A stretch of DNA of 55,530 nucleotides from Natrinema mahii (GTDB lineage: Archaea > Halobacteriota > Halobacteria > Halobacteriales > Natrialbaceae). The translations under genes were made by a program, and so were the position numbers. Below, piece after piece: positions 19,855 to 55,530 of the stretch. The DNA lies in the NCBI GenBank assembly GCA_000690595.2, contig JHUT02000011.1, positions 51,410 to 106,939 on the forward strand. The letters are read 5' to 3'. Numbering within the stretch: position 1 is the stretch's first letter; each line of letters begins with the position of its first letter. Under the pieces are notes generated by a model, which saw nothing but the letters and a program-made list of their open reading frames with translations, was not told the DNA's origin and did no database searches.

Positions 19855-20274
19855 ATGGCAGCTCTCAGCGCCCACCACGTCGGTCTCACGGTCAGCGATC
19901 TCGAGGCGACGCTCGCGTTCTACCGCGATACCCTCGGTCTCACCGTCGTCGATCGGTTCGCCGTCGGCGGCGAGGCCTTTGCCGACGCCGTCGGGGTCGA
20001 GGACGCGAGCGCCGATTTCGCACACCTCGAGGCCGATGGCGTCCGGATCGAACTCGTCGAGTACGAGCCGGAAGCCCGGGGCTCGCCGGCGGCGGGGCTC
20101 AACCAGCCGGGGGCCGCCCACGTCGGGCTCTCGGTCGACGACCTCGAGGCCTTCGCCGCCGACCTCCCCGACGACGTCCCGACGATCAGCGGGCCGCGAA
20201 CGACCGAGAGCGGCACCACGATCATGTTCCTGCGCGATCCGGAGGGGAACCTGATCGAGGTCCTCGAGTCCTGA
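19855..20274 (+). CDS. VOC-family protein (glyoxalase/bleomycin-resistance-like)
   Basis: A 139-aa protein with paired beta-alpha-beta-beta-beta modules. HHVGLTVSDLEATLAFYRDT is the first module and AAHVGLSVDDLEAFAADLP the second. Presumed metal ligands are His in HHVGLTV, Glu in RIELVEYE, His in AAHVGL and Glu in DPEGNLIEVLE. The sequence 'DPEGNLIEVLE' is the classic VOC end. It could be a lactoylglutathione-lyase-like or methylmalonyl-CoA-epimerase-like enzyme, but neither can be fixed from sequence. Confidence 0.85.
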   Translation: MAALSAHHVGLTVSDLEATLAFYRDTLGLTVVDRFAVGGEAFADAVGVEDASADFAHLEADGVRIELVEYEPEARGSPAAGLNQPGAAHVGLSVDDLEAFAADLPDDVPTISGPRTTESGTTIMFLRDPEGNLIEVLES

Positions 20275-20369
20275 GACGGTTTGTTGTCCCCGTGCAACCG
20301 CAGATCGGTCGCGGTCCCGCCGGCACCGACTTCCAGTCGACCGTCCGATCCAGGCAGTTCGCTCGCGCC

Positions 20370-20663
20370 CTACCGGTTGCAGGCGAGCGTCGATCGGACC
20401 CGCTCCACGTCGGTCTCACACTGCGAACAGACCCGTTTCTCGGCGTCGATGTAGACGACCCCGCACTGCGGGCAGTGAAACAGGTTGCCGGGCGCGTCCG
20501 AGTCCCCGCCGCGGCCCCGCTTTGTGCCCCCCGCTGGCCCGTCCTCACCGCCGGTCTCGTCGCTCCCCGAACCGGCCGGCTCGAACAGCGTCGATCGAAC
20601 CCGTTCGCGGAGGCGACTCGAGAGCGACTGCGACTGCGACTCCGATTTCCGTCGGCTATCCAT
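20370..20663 (-). CDS. zinc-ribbon protein
   Basis: A 97-aa protein. The first ~60 residues are low-complexity, Ser/Arg/Gly/Glu-rich (MDSRRKSESQSQSLSSRLRE). The C-terminus has two Cys knuckles, FHCPQCGVVY and VCSQCETDV, forming a rubredoxin-like zinc ribbon. ATG 20663 is chosen because the upstream frame is Arg/Pro-rich non-coding sequence. It may bind nucleic acid or protein; no partner is identifiable. It lies opposite the pyrF gene, whose 5' end is 156 bp away. Confidence 0.75.
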   Translation of the reverse strand: MDSRRKSESQSQSLSSRLRERVRSTLFEPAGSGSDETGGEDGPAGGTKRGRGGDSDAPGNLFHCPQCGVVYIDAEKRVCSQCETDVERVRSTLACNR

Positions 20664-20818
20664 ACAGTGTTCGATCAGGATACGAACGAAGTACGTGATG
20701 CCTGAAGGATTTGGAACGGCGTCGTGACGCGGTCGCCGCTCGCGGCGGTCGAGTCGAGGCCGCCGACCCGCGCGGGCCGGATAGCAACCTTTTCGACCGT
20801 CGCGGGGCCACACCCGCC

Positions 20819-21619
20819 ATGAACTTCTTCGACCGCCTGCACGACCGCATCGAAACGGTCGACAGCGTCGTCTCGGTCGGGCTCGATCCCGACCCGTCGC
20901 GGCTGCCCGACCACCTGCAGGACCGCGACCTCCCCCGGTGGGCGTTCAACCGCCGCATCATCGACGCCACGCACGAACACGCCGCCGCGTTCAAACCCAA
21001 CGCCGCCTTCTACGAGGACCCGGACGGCTGGGCCGCCTTGGAGGAGACCATCGCCTACGCCCGCGGCAAGGACGTGCCGGTCCTGCTGGACGCAAAGCGG
21101 GCCGACATCGGCAACACGACCCGCCAGTACGCCCAACTGCTCGAGAAAGCCGATGCGATCACGGTCAACCCCTACATGGGCCGGGACTCGCTGCAGCCGT
21201 TCCTCTCGAACGAGGAAGCCGGCGTCTTCGTCCTCTGTCGGACCTCGAACCCCGGCGGATCGGACCTGCAGGACCTCGAACTCGAGACGGGCGAACCCGT
21301 CTACGAGCGGGTCGCCGCGCTCGCGGACCTCTGGAACGAGAACGACAACGTCGGCCTCGTCGTCGGCGCGACCAAGCCCGAAGAACTCGAGGACCTGCGC
21401 GAGCAGGTGCCCGATCTGCCCTTCCTCGTGCCCGGGATCGGCGCGCAAGGCGGCGACGCCGAGGCAGCCGTCGAGTACGGGCTGGCCGGCGGTGTTGGAC
21501 TGGTCAACTCCTCACGAGGAATCATTTTCGCCGGGGAAAACGATGGGGAAGACTTCGCGAGGGCCAGCGGACAGGCTGCGAAGCGACTCAAGAAGCGGCT
21601 CAATCAGTACCGAGAGTAG
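20819..21619 (+). CDS. pyrF: orotidine 5'-phosphate decarboxylase
   Basis: A 266-aa OMP decarboxylase, last step of de novo UMP synthesis. The DxKxxD motif is DAKRADIGNT (D91, K93, D96). The phosphate-binding region is FLVPGIGAQGG and the following GLVNSSRGIIF. Layout and length fit the type 2 archaeal/bacterial PyrF, which is longer than yeast-like single-domain enzymes. ATG 20819 gives MNFFDRLHDRIE. Apart from VapBC, 132 bp downstream, no pyrimidine gene is linked. Confidence 0.93.
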   Translation: MNFFDRLHDRIETVDSVVSVGLDPDPSRLPDHLQDRDLPRWAFNRRIIDATHEHAAAFKPNAAFYEDPDGWAALEETIAYARGKDVPVLLDAKRADIGNTTRQYAQLLEKADAITVNPYMGRDSLQPFLSNEEAGVFVLCRTSNPGGSDLQDLELETGEPVYERVAALADLWNENDNVGLVVGATKPEELEDLREQVPDLPFLVPGIGAQGGDAEAAVEYGLAGGVGLVNSSRGIIFAGENDGEDFARASGQAAKRLKKRLNQYRE

Positions 21620-21751
21620 TACCGATAGTAGCTGGCGCGCTCGAGGCGATCGCACTGATCTCGAGTCAGTGATCGTCGTCGGTACAGCGGTGGTCGGCGC
21701 ACTCCTCGCGCCGGCGAAACACCTACAAAGATGAATTCACTATGAATTCAT

Positions 21752-21949
21752 ATGAGTCGAACGTCTATTCCGGTCGATTCGGCCACCAAAGAACGGCTGG
21801 ACCGATTGAAGCGAGACGGCGAAACCTGGGACGAATTCTTAGAACGAGTCACCGCTACTGAAGAACCGATCGAAGCCGGGGCATGGTCGGACGAGCAAGC
21901 AGAACGGGCAAAGGAGTCGATCAGGAAGTCCCGGGAGAACTGGCGATGA
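21752..21949 (+). CDS. VapB-like antitoxin
   Basis: A 65-aa protein. MSRTSIPVDSATKERLDRLK begins a short beta strand and helix as in ribbon-helix-helix antitoxins. The Trp/Glu-rich middle (ETWDEFLERV) and helical C-terminus (SDEQAERAKESIRKSREN) are the toxin-binding part. The stop overlaps the toxin start by 4 bases (ATGA at 21946-21949). The arrangement and size are those of haloarchaeal VapBC pairs. It is preceded by an AT-rich box (TGAATTCACTATGAATTC) that repeats GAATTCA and may hold its operator and promoter. Confidence 0.8.
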   Translation: MSRTSIPVDSATKERLDRLKRDGETWDEFLERVTATEEPIEAGAWSDEQAERAKESIRKSRENWR

Positions 21950-22341
21950 CGTTTCTCGACAGTTCGACCATCATCGAATATCTGCGGAACGACCGAACTG
22001 TCATCGAGTATCTCGATGAGCGACAGCCGTGGTGGACGTCGACGATTTGCGTGTTCGAGGTCCTGAACGGGCCCGCGGGATCGCAAGACTTCGACCCGAC
22101 CGAAGAACGGCAGAAATTCAGCGGTGTGCAGGCGCTCGAGTTCAACGAACAGCTGGCTTTGGAAGCCTCACGGTTACGGAATGAGGCTATCGAGGACGGA
22201 AGCGAACTGTCTCATCGGGACGCCATGATCGCCGCAACTGCACGTTCGACCGGGGACGAATACGTAGTCGCTGATAGTGACTTCGAGATCCGGCCGCTCG
22301 AGGACGTGATGGACGTTACGAACCTTCACAACGAGGATTGA
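21946..22341 (+). CDS. vapC: VapC-like PIN-domain toxin (ribonuclease)
   Basis: A 131-aa PIN-domain RNase. The acidic active-site set is visible: D5 in TFLDSSTIIEYL, E38 in TICVFEVLNG (the Glu of helix 2), an Asp in HRDAMIAATA and a Glu/Asp pair in EYVVADSDFE. The N-terminal strand 'TFLDSS' plus 'VADSDF' is standard VapC. It probably cleaves tRNA or rRNA when freed from VapB. ATG 21946 overlaps the antitoxin stop. It is an isolated TA pair with no transposase adjacent. Confidence 0.88.
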   Translation: MTFLDSSTIIEYLRNDRTVIEYLDERQPWWTSTICVFEVLNGPAGSQDFDPTEERQKFSGVQALEFNEQLALEASRLRNEAIEDGSELSHRDAMIAATARSTGDEYVVADSDFEIRPLEDVMDVTNLHNED

Positions 22342-22494
22342 GCGACCGATCACGTCTTTCGTCGGACACGGGCCGCTCTCCCGCTGGGACCGTTTACTGT
22401 TCGTGTACAACTCGAGTGAGTGGATCTCGAGGCCATCCTCGAGCAGTCTGAGGGAACTACAGCCCTGTCTCAGGGCAACGAAACCGCCGGAAAG

Positions 22495-22752
22495 TTACGC
22501 GTCCCGACGATCGGATTCGACCACCCGTCCCGCGATCCGCCCGTCGACGACTCGACCGACGATCTCGACCGTCACCGGCTCCGTCGGCGGTCGTTCCTCG
22601 AGCCGGTCCAGTCCCTCGACGACGGCGATGTCCATCGGACTCGAGTCGTTCGGGTGGGCGGCGACGAGGACGCCGTCGCGCTCCTCGAGTCGGAGTCGAT
22701 ACCGCCTGCCGACGCCGACCGCCTCGCCCAGCAGGTCGCGGATCGAGGTCAC
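22495..22752 (-). CDS. small haloarchaeal protein, function unknown
   Basis: An 85-aa protein (MTSIRDLLGEAVGVGRRYRL...) with a beta-rich pattern (YRLRLEERDGVLVAAHPNDS; PVTVEIVGRVVDGRIAGRVV). No Cys, no membrane segment. GTG at 22752 is chosen because it follows the zinc-finger gene stop (22755) by two bases, giving an operon. This beta-barrel-like pattern with 'GRRYRLRLEE' could be OB-fold or PilZ-like, but I cannot place it. Confidence 0.6.
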   Translation of the reverse strand: MTSIRDLLGEAVGVGRRYRLRLEERDGVLVAAHPNDSSPMDIAVVEGLDRLEERPPTEPVTVEIVGRVVDGRIAGRVVESDRRDA

Positions 22753-22754
22753 GC

Positions 22755-22934
22755 TCAGAACCGGTTGATCTCCACGTTGTCGTTGCCCGGCCCTGGCTGG
22801 GCCTGCGACGCGCAGTCGGCACACAGCTCCATACTCTCATCGAAGTGAACCTCGCAGGCCAGTGTCCCGCAGTTGGAACACCGCTCCTGTGCGGGCCGGG
22901 ACTCACAGATCTGACAGAGGCCGCTAACGCTCAT
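22755..22934 (-). CDS. HIT-type zinc-finger protein
   Basis: A 59-aa protein. Cysteines run CQICESRPAQERCSNCG, then CEVHFDESMELCADC: two interleaved Cys pairs with a His, the layout of HIT-type zinc fingers. ATG 22934 is chosen; the longer upstream frame is non-coding. It is followed 2 bp later by the 85-aa gene. Haloarchaeal proteins of this kind are short and probably bind another protein. Confidence 0.75.
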   Translation of the reverse strand: MSVSGLCQICESRPAQERCSNCGTLACEVHFDESMELCADCASQAQPGPGNDNVEINRF

Positions 22935-23033
22935 AGCGAGGGTACGCGCTCGAGGGGCTTGAAACCGGGCCCAGAATAGAGGGCCGTATTTAGTTAAGCA
23001 TGAAAAGTGAGGTGGCACGATTTTGTGGTGTCC

Positions 23034-23267
23034 ATGCCAAAAATCGACCGCATCAGCGGGTGTAGCGACTGGATCGATTTGAGTTTTGTGGAGCGAGAGC
23101 GGACACCGCGACGGCTTATGAAACTCGGTATTCGACTTCATCTTGCTGGATTATCGCTTTCAAATACCGTTCAAGAACTCGAGAAGTTCGGTTTCGAACG
23201 GTCACGGAAGGCTATTGCGAGATGGACGAGGGCCAGCAATTGCTCTTTATACAATAGAGTTAAATAG
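23034..23267 (+). pseudogene. IS6-family transposase, N-terminal remnant
   Basis: The frame MPKIDRISGCSDWIDLSFVE, ERERTPRRLMKLGIRLHLAG and LSLSNTVQELEKFGFERSRK gives the N-terminal zinc-finger/HTH region of haloarchaeal IS6-type (ISH14/ISH15-like) transposases. It breaks off at about residue 65 and continues as unrelated sequence to a stop. The DDE core is absent, so the element is dead. The region downstream is AT-rich and appears foreign. I could not identify a terminal inverted repeat with confidence. Confidence 0.75.
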
Positions 23268-23284
23268 GAAAAAATAACAAGGCT

Positions 23285-23290
23285 TATTAC
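23285..23290 (+). promoter_or_regulatory. TATA-like box for the Tat-exported protein
   Basis: TTATTA lies 25-30 nt before ATG 23315, in strongly AT-rich DNA. This fits a leaderless transcript. Confidence 0.4.
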
Positions 23291-23314
23291 TGACAGTTTC
23301 ATATTTGGTTTTGC

Positions 23315-24118
23315 ATGCCGGATATTAATAGAAGAAAGCTGTTGACATCAGGAAGTGCGGCGGTAGGACTAACAGTAGTGCCGAGTATTGGAGCAGCTAG
23401 TAGTGATAATAAAGATGCTGATCAAGAAAAAGTAAACCTCAACGATAATACAGTCCTATTCGAAGACAAAAATAAACGTATAATTGGTGTTGACCTCAGT
23501 AAAACTAGTGATAAGAAGGGAGAAGAAAATACGGCTGACCGGAGGCGTTTCATCACGGTCACAGATAAAGAGTCCGGATCTGTTTCATTGGAGGAAGTTA
23601 GTGCCCAGCGGTACGATGAATTAACCAACAAGGAAGAAATGACTGCGGCGGGTACTCAAGGCACTACGGCCGCTAACAGTTCTCCAGTCACCACAGCCGA
23701 TGACGCTGCCGTCGTCGAGTATTCAGACACCTATTGGCACAATAAAGGAAGTTGTGACGTTTATGACGACCACACCCACGTCTGGGCAGGCGTTAGCGCC
23801 CAATTCGCTAACGAAATTGGCGATCTTAGCTGGGCATCAGTCTCGGCTGCTCTCATCTCGATTGTTGGATCATCAAGTCTCAGTGCAGGGATTTCCGCTA
23901 TACTTGTTGCAGGGATTACTTTTGTTGGTGGTGTTGCTGCGTACGTGACGAACACTTATGCACTTACTTTTGGCGTTGAGGAATGGGATCAGTCGGCACT
24001 AATCAAACAGATACCCATGTACTCAATTAGGACAGCGCCTGGTTATCATCTCGATGAAGATGAATTGAAGACAATAACACCTGTTCCTAATCAACATCCT
24101 ACCAGACCACACCGTTAG
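23315..24118 (+). CDS. Tat-exported protein with Gly/Ala-rich hydrophobic core; candidate halocin-like precursor
   Basis: A 267-aa protein. The N-terminus NRRKLLTSGSAAVGLTVVPSIGAASS has an RR motif (6-10) and a hydrophobic stretch ending in a plausible cleavage site near residue 28. Residues 30-130 are polar and low-complexity (Asp/Lys/Glu/Thr). A hydrophobic, Gly/Ala/Ser-rich segment (about 160-217) follows, ending in an Asn/Thr-rich turn. Only one Cys (147), so it is not halocin C8-like. This signal-leader-core order and the downstream four-helix membrane protein resemble a bacteriocin precursor with its immunity gene. The function is inference. Codon use is lower in GC than neighbouring genes, and an IS6 remnant lies just upstream. 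Confidence 0.45.
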   Translation: MPDINRRKLLTSGSAAVGLTVVPSIGAASSDNKDADQEKVNLNDNTVLFEDKNKRIIGVDLSKTSDKKGEENTADRRRFITVTDKESGSVSLEEVSAQRYDELTNKEEMTAAGTQGTTAANSSPVTTADDAAVVEYSDTYWHNKGSCDVYDDHTHVWAGVSAQFANEIGDLSWASVSAALISIVGSSSLSAGISAILVAGITFVGGVAAYVTNTYALTFGVEEWDQSALIKQIPMYSIRTAPGYHLDEDELKTITPVPNQHPTRPHR

Positions 24119-24210
24119 ACCTGGTAGATATATACCTTATATGATTTAAGTCGATTGGTACTGACCGCCATCATAGATCATGCACAAAATGTCAGAGAAA
24201 GGTTTATCTG

Positions 24211-24218
24211 TATATATA
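24211..24218 (+). promoter_or_regulatory. TATA box for the four-helix membrane gene
   Basis: TATATATA lies 15-22 nt before ATG 24233, with a TTTATC a few bases further up (24203-24208). One of the two probably sets a [15 protein letters not shown]. Confidence 0.45.
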
Positions 24219-24232
24219 CTTATACTGATATC

Positions 24233-24607
24233 ATGGAAGGAAATATAACACATCAATCTATTAGCCAAAATGGCATTAAATTGGCTCTTAGTTTGGCCTT
24301 CGGCGGAATGGGGATAGCATTCGCCTTCAAGACCAATACCGGCCTAGAGTCACTATCTGTCCTTGTGATCGGACTGAGTATTCTTTTTGGACTCATTGTC
24401 GGATTAGAGAGCGAAATTGAGTCATTCGAGTATGCCCTCGATCGGGGGTTCTGGTTGATTGCAGGAATATTTATTTTTACACTTATTGCTTTTATTGGAG
24501 AAGAATCGTCAGTACCGCTATTGATTAGCTTTGCACTTGCTTTCAGCGGCAGTGTCATTATCAGTACACTTGCAGTGACTGTTGTGAGAAAGCTTCGCCG
24601 CAGATAA
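24233..24607 (+). CDS. four-helix membrane protein, possible immunity protein
   Basis: A 124-aa protein. Four hydrophobic segments: ALSLAFGGMGIAFAF, LVIGLSILFGLIVGLE, GFWLIAGIFIFTLIAFIGE, and LLISFALAFSGSVIISTLAV, with a basic cytoplasmic tail (VRKLRRR). MEGNITHQSISQNG at the start has no signal peptide. It lies 115 bp after the Tat-exported protein on the same strand, in the same AT-rich insert, with its own TATA box. Small tetraspanin-like proteins adjacent to bacteriocins often give self-immunity. That role is only suggested by context. Confidence 0.6.
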   Translation: MEGNITHQSISQNGIKLALSLAFGGMGIAFAFKTNTGLESLSVLVIGLSILFGLIVGLESEIESFEYALDRGFWLIAGIFIFTLIAFIGEESSVPLLISFALAFSGSVIISTLAVTVVRKLRRR

Positions 24608-24942
24608 GTCGGTAATGTCTCTAACCCTAATTCCAGGACGATTGCCGCCAAGAGCCAGGAGATCAACCCGAGAAACCATTCCGTTCGGTCCATAGTTGCG
24701 ATTGAGTTGTGGTATTATTAACTATTTCTAGCCCATGATTGTACCGACAGGTGTCTCGGTCATGACGTCGAAACCGATCAGGCTGTCCCCACTTTCGACC
24801 CTGTTTGGGAATCCAGACTTCGTCTCCGGTTCGGTAGCCGCTCGAGCATCCGGCCGCCGATCTCCCGGATCGGGAGCTATCCCGTGCTATATTGTCCCAA
24901 ACCACGAGAAGGCTTTTGCCGTGTGCCTGCCTATCAGTGGGC
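24608..24942. other. gene-free interval
   Basis: The first ~85 bp on the minus strand read MDRTEWFLGLISWLLAAIVL from an ATG at 24693. This is a plausible membrane-protein start, but it runs into the opposite-strand gene and no full gene can be formed. The rest is a transition from AT-rich to GC-rich DNA with no feature that I can support. Confidence 0.4.
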
Positions 24943-26544
24943 ATGAGCCGTGACCGGGCCCTCCTCGAGCGGGCCCTGGACCGTGGCGAACAGGACGGTG
25001 GCAACGTCGAGTTCAAAGAGCGCTTGTCACGGGACGTCCACCTCGAGGGTGGCCGGCGGGAGAGTCTCGCTGCACAACTTCGACACCGCCTTCTTTCGGG
25101 TGACGGCGAGGCGACCTACGTCGTCGGCGTCACCGACGACGGCGGCCTCGCTGGTATCGATCCCGACACCTTCTCCGAGACGATGGACGTCCTCTCCTTG
25201 CTCGCGGAGGAAGCTGACGCCCACATCGAAGACGTCCAGACGTGGGGCATAAACGAGGGGCTCGTCGGCGTCGCGCAGGTCCGGGAGGGCGGCGTTCTCG
25301 AGACCGACGACGAACACGTCGTCGTCGGGACCGCCGGCCACGTCGACCACGGAAAGAGTACGCTCGTCGGCTCGCTGGTCACGGGCAAGGCCGACGACGG
25401 GGACGGCGCGACGCGGGCCTTCCTCGATGTCCAGCCCCACGAGGTCGAGCGGGGACTCTCCGCCGACCTCTCCTACGCCGTCTACGGGTTCGACGACGAG
25501 GGGCCGGTCCGGGTCCGAAATCCGAACCGCAAGGCCGACCGCGCCGAGGTCGTTCAGGAGGCCGACCGGCTGGTCTCGTTCGTCGACACGGTCGGCCACG
25601 AGCCGTGGCTCCGGACGACCATCCGCGGGCTGGTCGGCCAGAAACTCGACTACGGGCTGCTGGTCGTCGCCGCCGACGACGGCCCCACCCGCACCACGCG
25701 GGAACACCTCGGCGTCCTGCTCGCGACCGACCTCCCGACGATCGTCGCGATCACCAAGACCGACACCGTCGACCAGCAACGCGTCGACGAGGTCGAACGC
25801 GAGGTCGAACGACTCCTCCGGGAGGTCGACAAGTCGCCGCTTCGCGTCTCCCGCCACGGCGTCGACGCCGCCGTCGACGAGATCAGCGAGCGCGTCGTTC
25901 CGATCGTCGAGACCAGCGCGATCACCATGGACGGGCTCGAGACGCTGGACGAACTGTTCGATCGGCTTCCCAAGACGGCCCAGGACGCCGGCGAGTTCCG
26001 GATGTACGTCGATCGCAGCTACTCGGTCACGGGGGTCGGCGCGGTCGCCTCCGGCACCGTCATGGCCGGCGAAGTCGAGGCCGGCGACGAACTCCTGATC
26101 GGGCCGATGGCCGACGGCCGCTTCCAAGACGTCGAGGTCCGGTCGATCGAGATGCACTACCACCGGGTCGACAAAGCACAGGCCGGCCGGATCGTCGGCA
26201 TCGCCTTGAAGGGGATCAAAGAGAGCGCCATCGAGCGCGGGATGGTCTTGCTGCCCCGCGAGGCCGACCCCGACCCCGTCCGGGAGTTCGAGGCCGAGGT
26301 CATGGTCTTGAACCACCCCACCCGCATCGGCGAGGGATACGAACCCGTCGTCCACCTCGAGACGATCGGCGAGGCAGCGGCTTTCTACCCGGAGAACGGC
26401 CGGCTGCTGCCGGGCGATTCGGGGACGACCACTGTCCGGTTCAAGTTCCGCCCGTACCTCGTCGAGGAGGGCCAGAAGTTCGTCTTCCGCGAGGGTCGCA
26501 GCAAGGGCGTCGGGACGGTGACCGACGTCACCCCGATGGAGTGA
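24943..26544 (+). CDS. GTPBP1-like translational GTPase
   Basis: A 533-aa EF-Tu superfamily GTPase. N-terminal ~125 residues include a domain that begins MSRDRALLERALDRG. G1 is GHVDHGKST (132-140), G3 is DTVGHE (215-220), and G4 is TKTD (271-274). A G5-like SAI is present. Two C-terminal beta-barrels follow (domain 2 from GVGAVASGTVMAGEV; domain 3 ending RSKGVGTVTDV). This is the archaeal counterpart of eukaryotic GTPBP1/GTPBP2, implicated in ribosome rescue/mRNA surveillance. ATG 24943 is chosen; upstream sequence is Cys/Arg-rich and not domain-like. Confidence 0.85.
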   Translation: MSRDRALLERALDRGEQDGGNVEFKERLSRDVHLEGGRRESLAAQLRHRLLSGDGEATYVVGVTDDGGLAGIDPDTFSETMDVLSLLAEEADAHIEDVQTWGINEGLVGVAQVREGGVLETDDEHVVVGTAGHVDHGKSTLVGSLVTGKADDGDGATRAFLDVQPHEVERGLSADLSYAVYGFDDEGPVRVRNPNRKADRAEVVQEADRLVSFVDTVGHEPWLRTTIRGLVGQKLDYGLLVVAADDGPTRTTREHLGVLLATDLPTIVAITKTDTVDQQRVDEVEREVERLLREVDKSPLRVSRHGVDAAVDEISERVVPIVETSAITMDGLETLDELFDRLPKTAQDAGEFRMYVDRSYSVTGVGAVASGTVMAGEVEAGDELLIGPMADGRFQDVEVRSIEMHYHRVDKAQAGRIVGIALKGIKESAIERGMVLLPREADPDPVREFEAEVMVLNHPTRIGEGYEPVVHLETIGEAAAFYPENGRLLPGDSGTTTVRFKFRPYLVEEGQKFVFREGRSKGVGTVTDVTPME

Positions 26545-26721
26545 CCGGGCGTTCGGGTTTCGTTCGCCGCCTCGAGCGGCCGAATGGCCGGGGTTTGCTC
26601 GGGCAGCGTTCCGATCTGGCAGGTGTTGCTCCCTTTCGTCCGCAAAACGTATTAATTAGACGCGGCTAAACCACGACGTGATTGGGATCGTCGTCGAGCG
26701 CCCGCAGCCGTCGCGATTCGC

Positions 26722-48823: not shown

Positions 48824-49573
48824 ATGAGTTCAGACGGAAACGACAACGATAGCGATCTCGACGATATTTCTCCGCACGTCCGCATCCGCGTTAAGCCTGA
48901 GACGAAACGCAAGTGGCTCGAGTACACGGACGAGAACGACCTCACGCTGACTGACTTGATCACTACCAGCGTGAACAACACCATTAGCGACGACTGGGTG
49001 CTCGCCGACGAACAAGACTCCACAGGAAGTGCAGAAGTCGATACGTCCGGACTCGAAGCAGGGGTGGAGACACTCAAAGACCGACTCTCCGCCATCGAAA
49101 CACAGTTAGACGATCTATCTGTCAGTGATGCCAGCAACGAAGATCTGGATCGGATGGAACTGGTTACGCTGGCGAACAACGTACACGACAAACTCCCTGT
49201 CGTGGCCGACGAAACCCAACTGATCGAAATCTCGCAACACGTTACTGGTCTCGACCATCAGGATCGACCGCGAGTCACCGGGACTGCCCAAGATATTTCC
49301 GCAGTGCTGGATGAGCCAGAGCATCAGATTCGAAGCGCTTTAATCTACCTTGAACAGCAGGAGAACACGAGCATTGCGAGTACGATCCATGACGGGACTC
49401 GCCGCTGGTTCGAGCGAGATCCGATGCTTGAAGACACCCAAGAGGTAGTAGAGAACTTGGAACTGGATCTTCCTCCTGAAGCTACGCTCGAGTTCGATTC
49501 AGCGTCCGAGTTTGACGACTACGAGCGGAGTGAGGATGACGTAGTGATTGAATCGGGTGATGACGATGAATAG
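48824..49573 (+). CDS. ribbon-helix-helix / winged-helix protein linked to an integrase
   Basis: A 249-aa protein. DISPHVRIRVKPETKRKWLE and YTDENDLTLTDLITTSVNNT form a ribbon-helix-helix-like N-terminus. A short coiled coil follows (ETLKDRLSAIETQLDDL), then a longer domain with 'TAQDISAVLDEPEHQIRSAL' that resembles a winged helix. The C-terminus is acidic. It ends within the start of the integrase gene (overlap of 14 bases), so the two are translationally coupled. It may be the excisionase or regulator of the element. Start ATG 48824 follows the inverted repeat. Confidence 0.7.
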   Translation: MSSDGNDNDSDLDDISPHVRIRVKPETKRKWLEYTDENDLTLTDLITTSVNNTISDDWVLADEQDSTGSAEVDTSGLEAGVETLKDRLSAIETQLDDLSVSDASNEDLDRMELVTLANNVHDKLPVVADETQLIEISQHVTGLDHQDRPRVTGTAQDISAVLDEPEHQIRSALIYLEQQENTSIASTIHDGTRRWFERDPMLEDTQEVVENLELDLPPEATLEFDSASEFDDYERSEDDVVIESGDDDE

Positions 49574-50621
49574 AAACGATACTGGGCAATTCGGATTGAA
49601 GTACGATCTCGATGAGGAACACACCGAGTACTTCGATGAGTATGGAGAGTGGGTGACGATCAATGTGGATAAGCAGACGACGATTGATCGGTTGAAGTCT
49701 GGCGTACGGGTGTGGTTGCATTGGTGCCAAAAACACGATGTGAACCCATATGAGGCGACTGAGAGAGACGTGCGGTTGTTCATCAAGTCGATGCAGCACG
49801 ATGAACTGGCGGAAACAACAATCACCCGGCGCGTAGCAACGGTGTCGAAGTACTACCACTTCCTCGCTACTGACCCAGTCATCGAGGTCGAGATTGAGAA
49901 CCCAACGAAAAATATCAGTCTCCCCAAGGACTACGATATTAAAAATCTCACCGAGTACGTTCGTGTTCTGGACGACGAAGGTCGCGACGACATTATCGCA
50001 CTCGACTACAAGCAGATCGAACCGATCTTCGATTACGTTCCCGGAAAGAAGGAATTCACCCGCGTGCGGAATAAGCTGATTTGCCACCTGTTTTGGCAGA
50101 CTGCGGTTAGAAGCGATGAACTGAGTCGATTCCGGGAGGATAACATTGATTGGGAGAACCGTGAGATCAAGATTCGCTCGTCGAAACTGAATCGGAAGGA
50201 TCATCCAGACCTGTACCACCGGCGTGTTTGGTGGGAACCAAATTTGGACTATCTAATGCGTCGGTGGGAGTCGAAGCGATCACAGGTTGATCCGAGTGGT
50301 GAGTGCCCGTATTGGCTTATTTCGGAAACAGGGAATCAGTTATCACCGAGTTATTTATCGCGGATTGTGAAGGATGCAGCTGATAACGCGGGAGTGAACG
50401 AACCACTGGTTCGAGGGGAAGATGGGGAGGTGCAGCAGTGGTTGTATACTGGCCATCGACTTCGGCACTCGAGAATTTCTCATTTAGCGAATGAAACGGA
50501 TCTCGATTTGAATTTCATCCGTATGATGGCTGGACATGCAAAAATGGACACGACGTTGAAGTATGTTGAAACGAATTGGGGTGCAGCACGGAACGCGTTT
50601 GAAGACGCGACTCACGTGTAG
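49560..50621 (+). CDS. tyrosine-type site-specific integrase
   Basis: A 353-aa recombinase, full length. An N-terminal core-binding (SAM-like) domain is RLKSGVRVWLHWCQKHDVNP to TRRVATVSKYYHFLA. The catalytic residues are R184 (TAVRSDELSR), a Lys in KIRSSKLNRK, H299 and R302 (TGHRLRHSRI), H326 (AGHAKMDTT) and nucleophile Y335 (LKYVET). All are intact, so it is probably active. Start candidates are 49548 (TTG), 49557, 49560 and 49566; 49560 keeps the overlap with the upstream gene. No transposase is nearby. Confidence 0.93.
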   Translation: MTMNRNDTGQFGLKYDLDEEHTEYFDEYGEWVTINVDKQTTIDRLKSGVRVWLHWCQKHDVNPYEATERDVRLFIKSMQHDELAETTITRRVATVSKYYHFLATDPVIEVEIENPTKNISLPKDYDIKNLTEYVRVLDDEGRDDIIALDYKQIEPIFDYVPGKKEFTRVRNKLICHLFWQTAVRSDELSRFREDNIDWENREIKIRSSKLNRKDHPDLYHRRVWWEPNLDYLMRRWESKRSQVDPSGECPYWLISETGNQLSPSYLSRIVKDAADNAGVNEPLVRGEDGEVQQWLYTGHRLRHSRISHLANETDLDLNFIRMMAGHAKMDTTLKYVETNWGAARNAFEDATHV

Positions 50622-50632
50622 TGCCTTCGCGT

Positions 50633-50684
50633 CAAGACGCAAAGGCGCCTTGGCGCCTTGATGCTTTAGCGTCTTTGCGTCTTG
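50633..50684. repeat. nested palindrome directly behind the integrase gene
   Basis: CAAGACGCAAAG (50633-50644) pairs exactly with CTTTGCGTCTTG (50673-50684). Inside it GGCGCC-TT-GGCGCC (50644-50657) and a further copy of GCGTCTT can be seen. The whole 60-bp block is built from variations of GCGTCTT. It begins 12 bp after the integrase stop. It could be an integrase arm-site array, attP, or a terminator. Confidence 0.75.
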
Positions 50685-50743
50685 GCGAAACGGCGTTTTC
50701 GGGCAGGAGAACGCTTAAGAGGATTGAATTCGATTATGGGATT

Positions 50744-50896
50744 ATGCCTGAAATTGAGATTGATGAGGAAGTCGCCATGGCCCTTAACCACGCCCTCGAT
50801 GGAGACGAATTCACCACTGAGAACGACCTACTCCGCGAGATCATGCATCAGAAGGGCTGGATACGGGCAGCCAAACGCAGCAATCCCGACAACTAA
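50744..50896 (+). CDS. small DNA-binding-like protein
   Basis: A 50-aa protein (MPEIEIDEEVAMALNHALDG...). The 'EIEIDEEVAMALNHAL ... ENDLLREIMHQKGW' pattern resembles a beta strand and two helices of ribbon-helix-helix or SeqA-N-like units. A TTAAG box at about 50714 lies 27-30 nt upstream. It stands behind the integrase and could regulate the element; this is uncertain. Confidence 0.5.
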   Translation: MPEIEIDEEVAMALNHALDGDEFTTENDLLREIMHQKGWIRAAKRSNPDN

Positions 50897-50916
50897 CCCT
50901 CACACCTTGTTCCCGT

Positions 50917-50935
50917 GCTAGCCGTTACGGCTAGC
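50917..50935. repeat. GCTAGCCG-TTA-CGGCTAGC stem-loop, left copy
   Basis: A perfect 8-bp stem with loop TTA, 20 bp after the small DNA-binding gene. A related stem (CTAGCCG-TC-CGGCTAG, 51983-51998) lies 1.05 kb away with similar flanks (CCCGT before, GCGC.CGAG after). The pair brackets the metzincin protease gene. Confidence 0.75.
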
Positions 50936-51065
50936 GCGAGCGGTTCTCTCACTGGTTTTCGAGCAGTCCGTCGTAGCGTTTAGACTCTCTGAGACCCTCG
51001 CCACTGGGTACGTACTGAGGAGAGTGCTTAGCAAAGTTTACTTCAACAAGTGATACCCAGACAAA

Positions 51066-51074
51066 TATTTATTA
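51066..51074 (+). promoter_or_regulatory. TATA box for the metzincin gene
   Basis: TATTTATTA in an AT-rich stretch, 33-41 nt before ATG 51107. Confidence 0.55.
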
Positions 51075-51106
51075 GAAACGTTACTTTCATCACTCGATAG
51101 ATCACT

Positions 51107-51877
51107 ATGCACAGACGCCGGGTTTTGGGCCTGTTCGGGGGAGGAGGGGCTCTTGGACTGGCATATTACTCTTTCAAAAACAACGTACTTGACCGGGGTA
51201 ATAGAAGTGGTTTTACCGTTCCCGAATCCTATCTAAATGACGATGATTTTGTGAATTGGCTTGACCGGATATATCGTGAAGGATTTTCTGGATTTGATGA
51301 TAGCATGCCTAATATACTCGTTGACGTGATAATTGTAGAAAACAATAGAGGGAACAATAGCTCAATTCCAGATGATGTTGTTGACAAAGTAGAGGAGAAA
51401 CATATCACGAAAGGAATTAACGCGATGGTTCAGGTTCGAGACGGTATATACCCATTTGACGACTTTACCCTTAACTACATGGAAATGGGGCCCGATAACA
51501 TTTCTCCCCATGTTGACAAATTCGTCAAGAGCGAAATCAGAGAGGAGATGAATGAAGCAGCCATTCAAGTAGTCATATTGCCGACCTACGGCCAGATAAT
51601 ACAATTTCCAGAGGAAGACGATGAGTGGGTGGGTTATAACAGTTCAGAGACTAATTCAATAGGGATATCAAGCACACCTGCAATCAAAAAGGATTATCAG
51701 GAGGATTTTGAGGGGGCCTTGTTACGAACATTCCTTCATGAACTTGGTCACGCATACGGACTTGACCATTCGCAGGATAAAAAGAGTATTATGTATAAGA
51801 AGATACACATGGGCTCTCGATCCGACTTTAGCGGGGAAGAATGGAGGAAGATTTGGGAAAGAATAGACTCTGACTGA
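51107..51877 (+). CDS. Tat-signal metzincin-type zinc protease
   Basis: A 256-aa protein. HRRRVLGLFGGGGALGLAYY is a twin-arginine signal with a hydrophobic stretch; no lipobox Cys is present, so it may be released or N-terminally anchored. The zinc motif HELGHAYGLDH (211-221) is a full HExxHxxGxxH, and the Met-turn is SIM (227-229) followed by YKK, so it is a metzincin of the archaemetzincin/matrixin-like group. The middle region (about 50-200) is not a known family to me. Codon use is AT-richer than chromosomal neighbours and stem-loop repeats flank the gene, so it is likely cargo of a mobile element. Confidence 0.8.
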   Translation: MHRRRVLGLFGGGGALGLAYYSFKNNVLDRGNRSGFTVPESYLNDDDFVNWLDRIYREGFSGFDDSMPNILVDVIIVENNRGNNSSIPDDVVDKVEEKHITKGINAMVQVRDGIYPFDDFTLNYMEMGPDNISPHVDKFVKSEIREEMNEAAIQVVILPTYGQIIQFPEEDDEWVGYNSSETNSIGISSTPAIKKDYQEDFEGALLRTFLHELGHAYGLDHSQDKKSIMYKKIHMGSRSDFSGEEWRKIWERIDSD

Positions 51878-51982
51878 CTGGTTCAGCAATAGTCCAGTTA
51901 CCCGTTCCCTGGGACTACAAAGAAACTCTTGGCATGGTTTCTCTGTGTCGGAGAACGCAGGGCATGCGACGCAACCCCCGTA

Positions 51983-51998
51983 CTAGCCGTCCGGCTAG
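51983..51998. repeat. CTAGCCG-TC-CGGCTAG stem-loop, right copy
   Basis: A 7-bp perfect stem with two-base loop, 105 bp after the metzincin stop. It matches the left copy (50917-50935) in the stem and shares bases on either side. Confidence 0.75.
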
Positions 51999-52059
51999 CG
52001 CACGAGACTAACTACGCGGCGATATGGACCATGTTGGCACATCGAACCTTGTGCAACGG

Positions 52060-52066
52060 TATTAAG
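52060..52066 (+). promoter_or_regulatory. TATA box for the 313-aa gene
   Basis: TATTAAG 25-31 nt before ATG 52091, the spacing of a leaderless transcript. Confidence 0.55.
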
Positions 52067-52090
52067 TCTACCACTTATGAACAGCGCTGT

Positions 52091-53032
52091 ATGTCCTCCG
52101 ACACCGTTTCGCCATTCAAGCTTCTCTGGCAGTACAATTACCCCTTCGCATACTGGGATAATCGACTTGAAAAAATCAACCCTCACAACCCTCAGGATCG
52201 ACTAGAGGCGCTGTACTGTCTTGTTCAACTTACAGACCTCTATTCGCACATTTTTGCAGCGAAAGTGCAGAATCCCGAAATGCCGTGGTTCTTTGTCGCT
52301 GAAGAAACTTACCGAGGAGATATTGATAACGTTCTTGAGAAACTCCGATTGTCGGATGTGGCGACGGTGGGAACTCTTGCGGAGGGACCTGATGGATTGG
52401 TGAATGTCGAAGCAAACGAAGAGTACGACGTGGATGTTATGGACGCGATTGCAGCAGGCTTTCTTGGGTGTCCTCACACCGTTGATGAGGACTCAAAGAG
52501 TGTCGAATTCGACGAGCCCCCTGAACTACATCGAGGTGTTTGCAATGCGATTCTTGACTATGCCGAAAACCAAACTGCACTGCTCAACGATTTCAAACAC
52601 GGGTTCCGAGTTCTTCCTGTTTCTCCGGATGATATCGATCAAATAGTAGAGGCGACGATGGTTTTTGATGAGAATGAACAAGAACGGCTTCAGAAGACCT
52701 TGGATAACTTAAGGGAGACATTGGTGTCAGATGAGTGGGGTTTCAGCTTTGTGAGATTATCGACGGAGTCAACGGACTATGGGTACGACTGTCAATTGGA
52801 TGTTTATCATGTGGATGCTTGGTCATGCTACAAATTTGCAGAGTTGACTCTGGATGCGCTATACAACCTGATTGCTCCTTCCCGCGGTATCACTCTGGAG
52901 GATTCACTTGAGGAGATTCCTGAGTTGATTTTGGAGGGGGAGGTCTCGGTCATGGATCATGTGTTCGGTATGGGGTTACCGCTTAGAGATGATCCTGAAG
53001 TTGTTGTCTCTAAGGAAGAGTTTCGATCCTAG
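52091..53032 (+). CDS. unrecognised 313-aa protein of the island
   Basis: A soluble acidic protein without signal peptide. The start MSSDTVSPFKLLWQYNYPFA is placed behind a TATA box; the in-frame extension further upstream is implausible. It has many aromatic and acidic residues and a conserved-looking internal region (HRGVCNAILDYAENQTALLN; YGYDCQLDVYHVDAWSCYKF). Five Cys are scattered without a CxxC pair. I see no nuclease, ATPase, methylase or membrane motif. It may be a sensor or regulator; I cannot assign a family. Confidence 0.65.
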   Translation: MSSDTVSPFKLLWQYNYPFAYWDNRLEKINPHNPQDRLEALYCLVQLTDLYSHIFAAKVQNPEMPWFFVAEETYRGDIDNVLEKLRLSDVATVGTLAEGPDGLVNVEANEEYDVDVMDAIAAGFLGCPHTVDEDSKSVEFDEPPELHRGVCNAILDYAENQTALLNDFKHGFRVLPVSPDDIDQIVEATMVFDENEQERLQKTLDNLRETLVSDEWGFSFVRLSTESTDYGYDCQLDVYHVDAWSCYKFAELTLDALYNLIAPSRGITLEDSLEEIPELILEGEVSVMDHVFGMGLPLRDDPEVVVSKEEFRS

Positions 53033-53170
53033 CTCCAGGTACCAGGAATGTGACTCATCCGGGGCAGATGTGTCTCAGCATCGGTGGAGTTCATGAAGAA
53101 CCTGGGGCAGTAGGACTCAAGGACTGTTTCAGATCGAGACTGCAATCGATGAACATTCATATTCTGTGAG

Positions 53171-53189
53171 AGCTATCGTAGAGATAGCT
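53171..53189. repeat. AGCTATC-GTAGA-GATAGCT inverted repeat at a start codon
   Basis: A perfect 7-bp stem with 5-nt loop. Its last base is the first base of the TTG start codon at 53189. It could hide the start in an mRNA hairpin or be an operator. Confidence 0.6.
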
Positions 53190-53734
53190 TGACGGATCAG
53201 ACTACAGAATCCTCTCGAGTTACTGTTCAAGCAGGGGAAACAACTAATATCGGTATCAATCTGGAGGGGATAGTCCCGACAGAGGCTCGAGTGATGGTTG
53301 ATGATGAAGTCGTTAAAACGACGGAATTGCCTGCTGATCTGCCGGAGTGGTGGTTTAATTTCTCACGAGATACACCCGGGCAGTATCATGTTGAGATTAT
53401 TGTTGAGGGCGAGTTTCCTGGACGACTAGGTCACCTTTACGAACAGGATGCGCTTGAGTTCGACAATACAGAAGCTCGTGCGGCGTGGGATGTTGTTGTT
53501 ACACCGGGTAAACAGAAATCAAAGATAGGGCGGGTTTGGGGTATCATCAAAGAGTTCCTTGCGATCTATTCTCTGGCCACTCTTGTACAGAAGGTGTATC
53601 TGAAGGTTCGGGAACTTCCGGGGCGACTGCGTCAAGCAGAGTCCGAGGAAACTGAGGACGTGAACGCGACGTTGAATGATTTTCAGACTGAAGATGCCTC
53701 AGATGGTGATTCGGGAGGTGGTGCTGAAAGTTGA
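53189..53734 (+). CDS. beta-rich protein with TTG start, function unknown
   Basis: A 181-aa protein. Residues 1-105 are rich in beta strands (SSRVTVQAGETTNIGINLEG; EARVMVDDEVVKT; YHVEIIVEGEF) like an Ig/CARDB-type sandwich. A helical segment follows (KIGRVWGIIKEFLAIYSLAT to LVQKVYLKVREL), perhaps membrane-associated, and an acidic Ser/Gly/Asp-rich tail ends it. TTG 53189 is the only start giving the whole domain. It is 156 bp behind the 313-aa gene. Confidence 0.55.
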   Translation: MTDQTTESSRVTVQAGETTNIGINLEGIVPTEARVMVDDEVVKTTELPADLPEWWFNFSRDTPGQYHVEIIVEGEFPGRLGHLYEQDALEFDNTEARAAWDVVVTPGKQKSKIGRVWGIIKEFLAIYSLATLVQKVYLKVRELPGRLRQAESEETEDVNATLNDFQTEDASDGDSGGGAES

Positions 53735-53860
53735 AACGCTCATCTGTACTAATCGACCAGTTATTTTGTCGTAGAAGGCAGGCAAGCCGACGCACGGAGG
53801 ACACGAACAAGGTGAACGCACCCGGTAGATTCATGTGTTATTTGGATAAAATAATGAAGC

Positions 53861-54466
53861 ATGGTAAGTTCAGACGGCTGCTACTTTTGCAATTCAGAGG
53901 TCGATATCGAGGAACACCATATCCTTCCACAAAGATTCGATGGATCTGATCTACCGGGCAATACGGTCGATCTTTGCCATGACTGTCACTGGAAACTCGA
54001 GCGTCTGTACAACAAGGATTTCTGGGAGGCGATTGGCGTCGATGATCCGCGAGCTACAAAAGAAAGTCATGTAACTTGTAATTACCACTCCTGCATGAAA
54101 TCAGCTGTGGGGAGCTACCATGCCAGTGGAGTTGTTGGTGGGAGTGGGCTGGTGTACCGATGCGAGGAACATATGCCAGATGGGGTGGAGAACGGTGGCG
54201 AAGAGGGTGATGATGAACTGGAGCTCCGGTCTATCGGGGAAGAGGAGGAACCGAGTACTCATATTGCGCGTTTAGAATTTGGTCTGGAGAATGAGCCTAT
54301 AACGCCAGATTCCATCGAGGATATGTATGATTTGGTTTTTGATCACTTGTATTTCGACGAATCGAATGGGGTCGTAACTGAGTTTCAGGCGTTAGTGAAT
54401 TCACAGATTTATCATGCGGAGTATTCGGATGGAACGTGGACTGTTAGCTATGAGGGTGACTACTGA
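53861..54466 (+). CDS. HNH-family endonuclease
   Basis: A 201-aa protein. The N-terminus has CYFCNSEVDIEEHHILPQRF, containing a CxxC and the H-H catalytic pair, then the Asn and second zinc pair in GNTVDLCHDCHWKLERL. This is the beta-beta-alpha HNH nuclease (about residues 7-50). The remaining 150 residues include a second Cys/His-containing segment (HVTCNYHSCMKSAVGSYHAS; YRCEEHMPDG), then an acidic region. Such HNH proteins occur in mobile elements and defence. A TATA-like TTGGATAAAATA lies about 20 nt upstream. Confidence 0.8.
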   Translation: MVSSDGCYFCNSEVDIEEHHILPQRFDGSDLPGNTVDLCHDCHWKLERLYNKDFWEAIGVDDPRATKESHVTCNYHSCMKSAVGSYHASGVVGGSGLVYRCEEHMPDGVENGGEEGDDELELRSIGEEEEPSTHIARLEFGLENEPITPDSIEDMYDLVFDHLYFDESNGVVTEFQALVNSQIYHAEYSDGTWTVSYEGDY

Positions 54467-54513
54467 GGGCTTTCGTCTCGTCTATCCTCTGCCAGTGATC
54501 AAGGCCACAACGT

Positions 54514-55395
54514 TCACCCGAGAATGATTAGATGTGCAAATAGCACTGTGAGGTTTTGGAACAACACCCGATAACGTATCTGAGACTGCTTTCGAAAGGA
54601 GGCTGCTCCGAACTGCTTGTAAAGCCGGTTTGTGGATGCACCTATTGATGTTGCTGAAACGAAGATGAGGAGTGAGACACCAAGACTTCCAAAAACGGCG
54701 GCTCCCCAAACCACACCAAACGATCGGAGAGCTAACCACCTCGTAAGCCCGACAAAGGCTTGCGCTGTTTCACCTGGCCGTGGAACGATCGTCTCAGGCT
54801 CCTTTTGCCGTAGTTGAACGACTGAATTAGGCAGTTCTTCGTCTGGCTTGGATAACTTGTGAGCTTCTTTGATTGCTCTATTCTGCTGTATTCGACGCCA
54901 TAACGCAGTATCGCTAGTGTTTGCCTGCCAACTCGCGATAACTATGTTAAATAAAATCTGTTCGGTCTTTGCGTACTTAATCTGGAGAGCAATAGGCACG
55001 AAAATGGTTGCTATGCTTAGGATGAATAACCACAAAACGTAGTTGAAGTACACTAAATCTTGTATCAGAAAGGCAACTTTGGCAATGACGTAGAGGATAC
55101 CGAGGATGCTAATTTCCACCATAAATTCGATGGAAGCTGCCATGAACGCGGAATGGGTATTCTCGCTTCCGTTCATAATGAGAATACGCCGTATGAGGGT
55201 GAGTGCTGCAAAAAGCACCATCAAAAATTTCAGTATTTGGTATGAGATGTCATTCTCTGTAGGATATGCAAGAACGATCGTCAGGATCAACATGAAAAAT
55301 GCAATCTCAAAATCAACCAAGCTGTCCAATGAGAGATCGTCATGAAACACCTCCCCCTCTGGGATCGGATCAATATCTATTCGACTCTCACTCAT
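54514..55395 (-). CDS. six-helix membrane protein, function unknown
   Basis: A 293-aa protein from ATG 55395 (MSESRIDIDPIPEGEVFHDD). The frame stays open to the right edge, but the sequence before this ATG looks non-coding and a TTAAG box precedes it by about 35 nt. Hydrophobic segments: FFMLILTIVLAYP, FLMVLFAALTLIRRILIM, FMVEISILGILYVIAKVAFL, YVLWLFILSIATIFVPIAL, then a 75-residue cytoplasmic loop with charged helices (RIQQNRAIKEAHKLSKPDEE), then two more (FGVVWGAAVFGSLGVSLLIF; LTVLFAHLIILG). It is convergent with the HNH gene. It may be an effector or transporter; the family is not recognised. Confidence 0.65.
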   Translation of the reverse strand: MSESRIDIDPIPEGEVFHDDLSLDSLVDFEIAFFMLILTIVLAYPTENDISYQILKFLMVLFAALTLIRRILIMNGSENTHSAFMAASIEFMVEISILGILYVIAKVAFLIQDLVYFNYVLWLFILSIATIFVPIALQIKYAKTEQILFNIVIASWQANTSDTALWRRIQQNRAIKEAHKLSKPDEELPNSVVQLRQKEPETIVPRPGETAQAFVGLTRWLALRSFGVVWGAAVFGSLGVSLLIFVSATSIGASTNRLYKQFGAASFRKQSQIRYRVLFQNLTVLFAHLIILG

Positions 55396-55530
55396 TATGT
55401 TGGAAAGTATACTAACGGGTCTTAATTCTACCGTGCTATCCTGTTCGGACTGACTCCACAGTAGGTGTACGACTATATCGCTGAGAGAAATAGACGGGGT
55501 CGAATCGAACCTCAGTACCTCACAAAGCAT

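What the first reader, a model, noticed from the sequence alone, without database searches (positions are those of the whole stretch)
23034..24607. Possible halocin/immunity cassette beside an IS6 remnant
A Tat-type protein with a polar spacer and a Gly/Ala/Ser-rich hydrophobic core (residues about 160-217) is followed 115 bp later by a four-helix membrane protein. Both have lower GC than their surroundings, and each has its own TATA-like box. The core is not Cys-rich, so this is not the halocin C8 type. Established: bacteriocin genes are often paired with small polytopic immunity proteins, and mobile DNA often surrounds them. The functional reading is inference.
Basis: partly seen in the sequence, partly recalled or inferred. 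Interest (0 to 1): 0.6.

Follow-up and report, generated by a model that had tools for sequence, protein, structure and literature searches.

The report
Halocin-like toxin gene with immunity partner
A small, recently acquired DNA island in a salt-loving archaeon carries a Tat-exported protein that looks like a membrane-attacking toxin and, beside it, a small membrane protein that probably protects the producer; the same two-gene pairing recurs in about 30 other haloarchaeal loci but belongs to no catalogued toxin family.

Summary
Positions 23315-24118 encode an intact 267-aa Tat prepro-protein with a Gly/Ala/Ser-rich hydrophobic core, followed after 114 bp by a 124-aa protein with four predicted membrane helices (24233-24607). 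With a truncated IS6 transposase (23037-23267) they form a 45% GC island of about 1.9 kb (22973-24862). All 11 congeneric genomes aligned lack it. The Tat protein belongs to a family of about 38 haloarchaeal loci (C147, H155, H261 conserved) with no Pfam, NCBIfam, PHROG or PDB family. In 30 of 38 loci a small membrane ORF lies 3-168 bp downstream on the same strand, against 1 of 14 Tat-protein controls and 0 of 30 other ORFs. Partner similarity tracks toxin similarity (Mantel r=0.58, p=2e-4). The family is not halocin C8: its N- and C-terminal domains do not align with C8 precursors, although a true C8 gene in the same genome has the same layout. Best explanation: a secreted, proteolytically released, membrane-inserting halocin-like toxin with a dedicated membrane immunity protein (confidence 0.62). 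Toxicity and immunity are untested. A 2019 survey of archaeal toxins that may list this family could not be read.

The parts
22973..24862 (.). Low-GC (45%) island of about 1.9 kb, absent from the same site in 11 of 11 congeneric genomes
   Evidence: blastn of window 20001-26600: homology stops at 22967-22976 and resumes at 24850-24898 in all relatives; in the nearest, L085, only 28 bp lie between
23037..23267 (+). Truncated IS6-family transposase (N-terminal part only)
   Evidence: NF033587 E 6.9e-11, profile positions 1-59 of 202
23284..23289 (+). TATA-like TTATTA about 26-31 nt before the toxin ATG
   Evidence: sequence; consensus match only
23315..24118 (+). Halocin-like Tat-exported precursor, 267 aa
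23315..23407 (+). Tat signal peptide (residues 1-31)
   Evidence: NRRKLL and GAAS; RR nearly invariant in 30 relatives
23408..23626 (+). Propeptide domain (residues 32-104), predicted four strands and a helix
   Evidence: AlphaFold2 model, pLDDT mostly 78-88
23627..23704 (+). Polar linker (residues 105-130), disordered at 108-115; proposed cleavage zone
   Evidence: pLDDT under 50 at 108-115; cleavage is inference
23705..24115 (+). Putative mature toxin domain (residues 131-267): beta-sheet framing a Gly-rich hydrophobic helical hairpin (173-211); conserved C147, H155, H261
24203..24208 (+). TATA-like TTTATC about 25-30 nt before the immunity ATG
   Evidence: sequence; consensus match only
24233..24607 (+). 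Putative immunity protein, 124 aa, four membrane helices

Best explanation
The island carries a halocin-type antagonism cassette. The Tat protein is a precursor: it is exported by Tat, a protease cuts the polar linker after the beta-rich propeptide domain, and the released C-terminal domain of about 135 residues inserts its glycine-rich hydrophobic helical hairpin into the membrane of a related archaeon and disrupts it. The four-helix membrane protein encoded just downstream stays in the producer's membrane and blocks the cognate toxin. The cassette was acquired recently at a mobile-DNA-marked spot. Shown: gene anatomy, family, conserved pairing, covariation and recent insertion. Predicted: domain layout and membrane topology. 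Inferred: proteolytic release, toxicity, membrane target and immunity.
For: Conserved pairing: 30/38 family loci have a 55-140 aa membrane ORF 3-168 bp downstream, against 1/14 Tat-protein controls (Fisher p 4e-6) and 0/30 other acidic ORFs. Partners diverge until unrecognisable yet track the toxin: Mantel r 0.58, p 2e-4 over 25 non-redundant pairs; the closest toxin relative, L005, has a homologous partner (profile E 1e-13), although placed upstream. Small partners evolve quickly but under constraint (dN/dS about 0.5-0.7 in most close pairs). In L052/L056 (Halostella pelagica) the toxin frame lacks the Tat start and hydrophobic core while the partner is intact. Patchy distribution and an empty site in 11/11 congeners. 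A true halocin C8 gene in the same genome has the same layout: Tat precursor, then a 125-aa four-TM ORF 78 bp downstream. Two-domain model with a helical hairpin in the C-domain. Weak glycine-zipper matches and one class IIc bacteriocin match among members.
Against: No toxicity or immunity data. No database or fold match to a known toxin. Six of 38 loci show no partner even when relaxed criteria and the upstream side are allowed. The nearest homologues of the immunity protein, in four genomes, lack a toxin neighbour; three are in or near htpX/pspAB loci, so the protein type may have a general envelope role. Cleavage is only inferred from a disordered linker. The conserved Cys/His residues could mean a metal-binding or enzymatic function instead of pore formation.
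Confidence: 0.62

Rival explanations
1. The Tat protein is a surface or envelope protein with no toxic activity, and the small membrane protein is its anchor, chaperone or processing helper.
For: Tat export and pairing fit equally; partner homologues beside htpX and pspAB, genes of membrane quality control and stress; conserved C147/H155/H261 could serve binding or catalysis.
Against: A helper would be expected to be conserved, but partners fall into many mutually undetectable sequence groups while toxins stay alignable; patchy distribution and recent island gain; a truncated toxin with the partner retained in L052.
Confidence: 0.2
2. A halocin-like toxin whose immunity lies in its own propeptide, as reported for halocin C8; the membrane protein has another role such as export or sensing.
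For: Separate beta-rich propeptide domain; [quoted passage not shown] 2005, cited in PMC6759562); six loci lack a partner.
Against: The propeptide does not align with C8 precursors; classical C8-like loci (L109, L110, L115, L116) lack the downstream membrane ORF, whereas this family nearly always has one.
Confidence: 0.1
3. An intracellular toxin-antitoxin pair or other mobile-element passenger.
For: Lies in a mobile-DNA-marked island next to a VapBC-like pair.
Against: Tat signal on the first protein, membrane topology of the second, no match in PADLOC or TA families.
Confidence: 0.05

Closest known systems
Halocin C8 family (NCBIfam TIGR04449; Pfam PF22862 Hac8_like_N)
   Same: Tat prepro-protein, hydrophobic Gly/Ala-rich C-terminal domain, haloarchaeal and patchy; about half of C8-type loci (16 of 31) also have a small membrane ORF downstream
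   Different: No TIGR04449 or PF22862 match in any of 30 members; one Cys instead of about ten in the mature domain; N- and C-domains do not align with C8 precursors (hhalign probability under 1%); predicted beta-framed hairpin
Class II bacteriocins with small membrane immunity proteins
   Same: Secreted Gly-rich membrane-active peptide next to a small polytopic immunity gene; one member weakly matches PF10439 (E 0.004)
   Different: Tat export instead of a double-glycine leader; larger mature domain with predicted beta strands; similarity probably convergent
HmHapP/HFX_0892 protease-activated precursor (PMC12893001)
   Same: Haloarchaeal secreted precursor activated by extracellular proteolysis
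   Different: Activity sits in its N-terminal 45 aa helices; no sequence comparison with this family was made here

Membership tests
Halocin C8 family | Cys-rich C8 domain (TIGR04449) at the C-terminus | tested here: not met
   0 of 30 members match at E up to 0.1; C-domain does not align with 31 C8-type precursors
Halocin C8 family | Tat signal and cleaved precursor | tested here: inconclusive
   Tat motif met; two domains with a disordered linker in the model; cleavage not shown
Halocin C8 family | Halocin 8-like N-terminal domain (PF22862) | tested here: not met
   No match among 30 members; N-domain profile does not align
Secreted toxin-immunity pairs (bacteriocin type) | Adjacent, conserved pairing of an exported protein and a small membrane protein | tested here: met
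   30/38 against 1/14 controls (control set)
Secreted toxin-immunity pairs (bacteriocin type) | Partner diversifies together with the toxin | tested here: met
   Mantel r 0.58, p 2e-4
Secreted toxin-immunity pairs (bacteriocin type) | Growth inhibition and specific protection | not testable with these tools
   Needs the bench

The most novel reading that the evidence does not exclude
A widespread, unnamed family of archaeal bacteriocins: Tat-exported precursors that release a beta-sheet-framed glycine-zipper hairpin toxin with a conserved Cys-His-His set, each with its own rapidly diversifying two- or four-helix membrane immunity protein, possibly related to proteins at the HtpX-PspAB envelope-stress locus.
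Probability: 0.35. Interest if true: 0.68.

Novelty: new variant of a known kind. Interest (0 to 1): 0.5.

Why it matters
Few halocins are known at the gene level, and immunity has been worked out for very few of them (own knowledge; C8 is the best-known case). A family of about 38 loci with a recognisable precursor signature and an adjacent candidate immunity gene would make haloarchaeal warfare directly testable in genetically tractable hosts, and would help sort many hypothetical Tat proteins.

Tried and rejected
Pfam, NCBIfam, PHROGs and PADLOC scans and PDB sequence search gave no family. Foldseek against PDB and BFVD gave nothing at E up to 0.001; VIA-align rows (best Z 5.9) covered only the small propeptide sheet and are not evidence. 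The immunity model matched only generic helix bundles (Fluc, Z 4.4). tblastn in plasmid and phage collections found no relatives. The genome-contig scan was weak (2 loci). Class-wide profile hits limited to profile positions 1-100 or so were discarded as Tat-signal matches. No terminal inverted repeats or target duplication convincingly frame the island. Alignment A4 contained one mistyped N-terminus and was replaced by A5. Makarova et al. 2019 (mBio 00715-19), which from memory predicts many archaeal toxins including C8 relatives, is not held, so prior listing of this family cannot be excluded. The halocin H4 plasmid record is not held, so H4 was not compared.

Full report
Observation. The window carries an intact 267-aa ORF (23315-24118) with a Tat signal and a 124-aa membrane ORF (24233-24607), 114 bp apart. 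Both have GC3 of about 40% in a genome where neighbouring genes have 87-89%. A truncated IS6 transposase lies just upstream. The best partner start is the ATG at 24233, because the 44% identical relative in the same genus (L022) starts at the equivalent point.

Island. Alignment of 20001-26600 with the same locus in 11 congeneric genomes shows homology ending at about 22972 and resuming at about 24863 in every one; in the nearest (L085, 90-94% identical flanks) only 28 bp lie between. The toxin-partner pair is therefore most simply a recent gain. The VapBC-like pair at 21752-22341 is a separate variable segment, shared only with L085.

Family. A single-sequence search found matches in 17 of 391 class genomes; a profile found about 38 core-containing loci. 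Alignment of 30 members shows RR, C147, H155 and H261 nearly invariant, a Gly/Ala-rich hydrophobic stretch and a T-F/I-G-x-x-E/D-x-D block. No member belongs to a catalogued family; weak matches are to Tat signals, glycine zippers and, once, a class IIc bacteriocin. The window's own genome holds further members: C7 (L064), C4 (L058, with a 73-aa two-helix partner) and possibly C3 (L002).

Partner. Using one fixed rule (55-140 aa, at least one membrane segment, ATG within 200 bp downstream, same strand), 30 of 38 family loci have a partner, against 1 of 14 other Tat proteins and 0 of 30 other acidic ORFs. The single positive control, L072, is itself a Tat protein with a Cys-bearing C-terminus and may be another halocin type. 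Relaxing the threshold adds L060, and L005 has its partner upstream. Some loci are near-duplicates (L033/L034, L049/L050, L051/L058), so the count overstates independence somewhat. Toxin and partner similarity correlate over 25 non-redundant pairs (Mantel r 0.58, p 2e-4). The toxins closest to the window (L005, L006, L007, L008, L010) have 120-127 aa four-helix-type partners, most remoter ones 64-84 aa two-helix partners.

Structure. The AlphaFold2 model (30 sequences, mean pLDDT 76; C-domain about 90) gives a propeptide of four strands and a helix (39-104), a linker disordered at 108-115, and a C-domain of two strands, two helices (173-186, 191-211) and three strands. No fold match was found. 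The partner is modelled as four helices.

Comparison with halocin C8. The same genome has two true C8-type genes; one (L096) is followed 78 bp downstream by a 125-aa four-TM ORF. Across 31 C8-type loci 16 have such an ORF; the four classical C8-like sequences do not. Profile comparison of the full proteins gives an alignment (probability 94.5%) whose convincing part is the shared Tat signal region; the N-domain and C-domain taken alone do not align. So it resembles a C8-type halocin system in layout but is not a member of that family.

Mechanism. Export by Tat, release by proteolysis at the linker, insertion of the helical hairpin into a competitor's membrane, and blocking by the cognate membrane protein is the most economical reading. 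Only anatomy, pairing, covariation and insertion are shown; everything functional is inferred. Extracellular protease activation of a haloarchaeal precursor has a published precedent (PMC12893001), though in an apparently different protein.

Complication. The closest homologues of the window's partner (L022-L025) have no toxin beside them. Three lie in or near htpX-pspAB loci. They may be orphan immunity genes or envelope-stress proteins from which immunity was recruited.

Noticed in passing
L098:3767-4138, L100:3880-4323, L101:3943-4314: Relatives of the putative immunity protein sit at htpX/pspAB membrane-stress loci without a toxin in three genera, as orphan immunity genes or envelope-stress proteins.
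   Followed up: partly
window 21752-22341: VapB-like (DUF7557/VAPB_antitox) and PIN-domain toxin-antitoxin pair, a separate variable insertion present in only one (L085) of 11 congeneric relatives.
   Followed up: partly
L096:907-2169 and L097 (own genome, contigs C16 and C2): Two genuine halocin C8-type genes elsewhere in the genome; the first has its own 125-aa four-helix ORF 78 bp downstream.
   Followed up: partly
L052 and L056 (Halostella pelagica): A relative whose toxin frame has lost the Tat start and hydrophobic core while the membrane partner is intact, as expected of retained immunity.
   Followed up: partly
L072 (control locus): A Tat protein with a Cys-bearing C-terminus (CTICTPSLYLYPVDC) followed 76 bp later by a 70-aa two-helix ORF: possibly another halocin-type pair.
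   Followed up: no
window 49000-55530: Second low-GC region (44-52%) with a tyrosine-recombinase-like ORF (49548-50621), an HNH-like ORF and a metalloprotease-like ORF, judged by eye only; looks like an integrated element.
   Followed up: no
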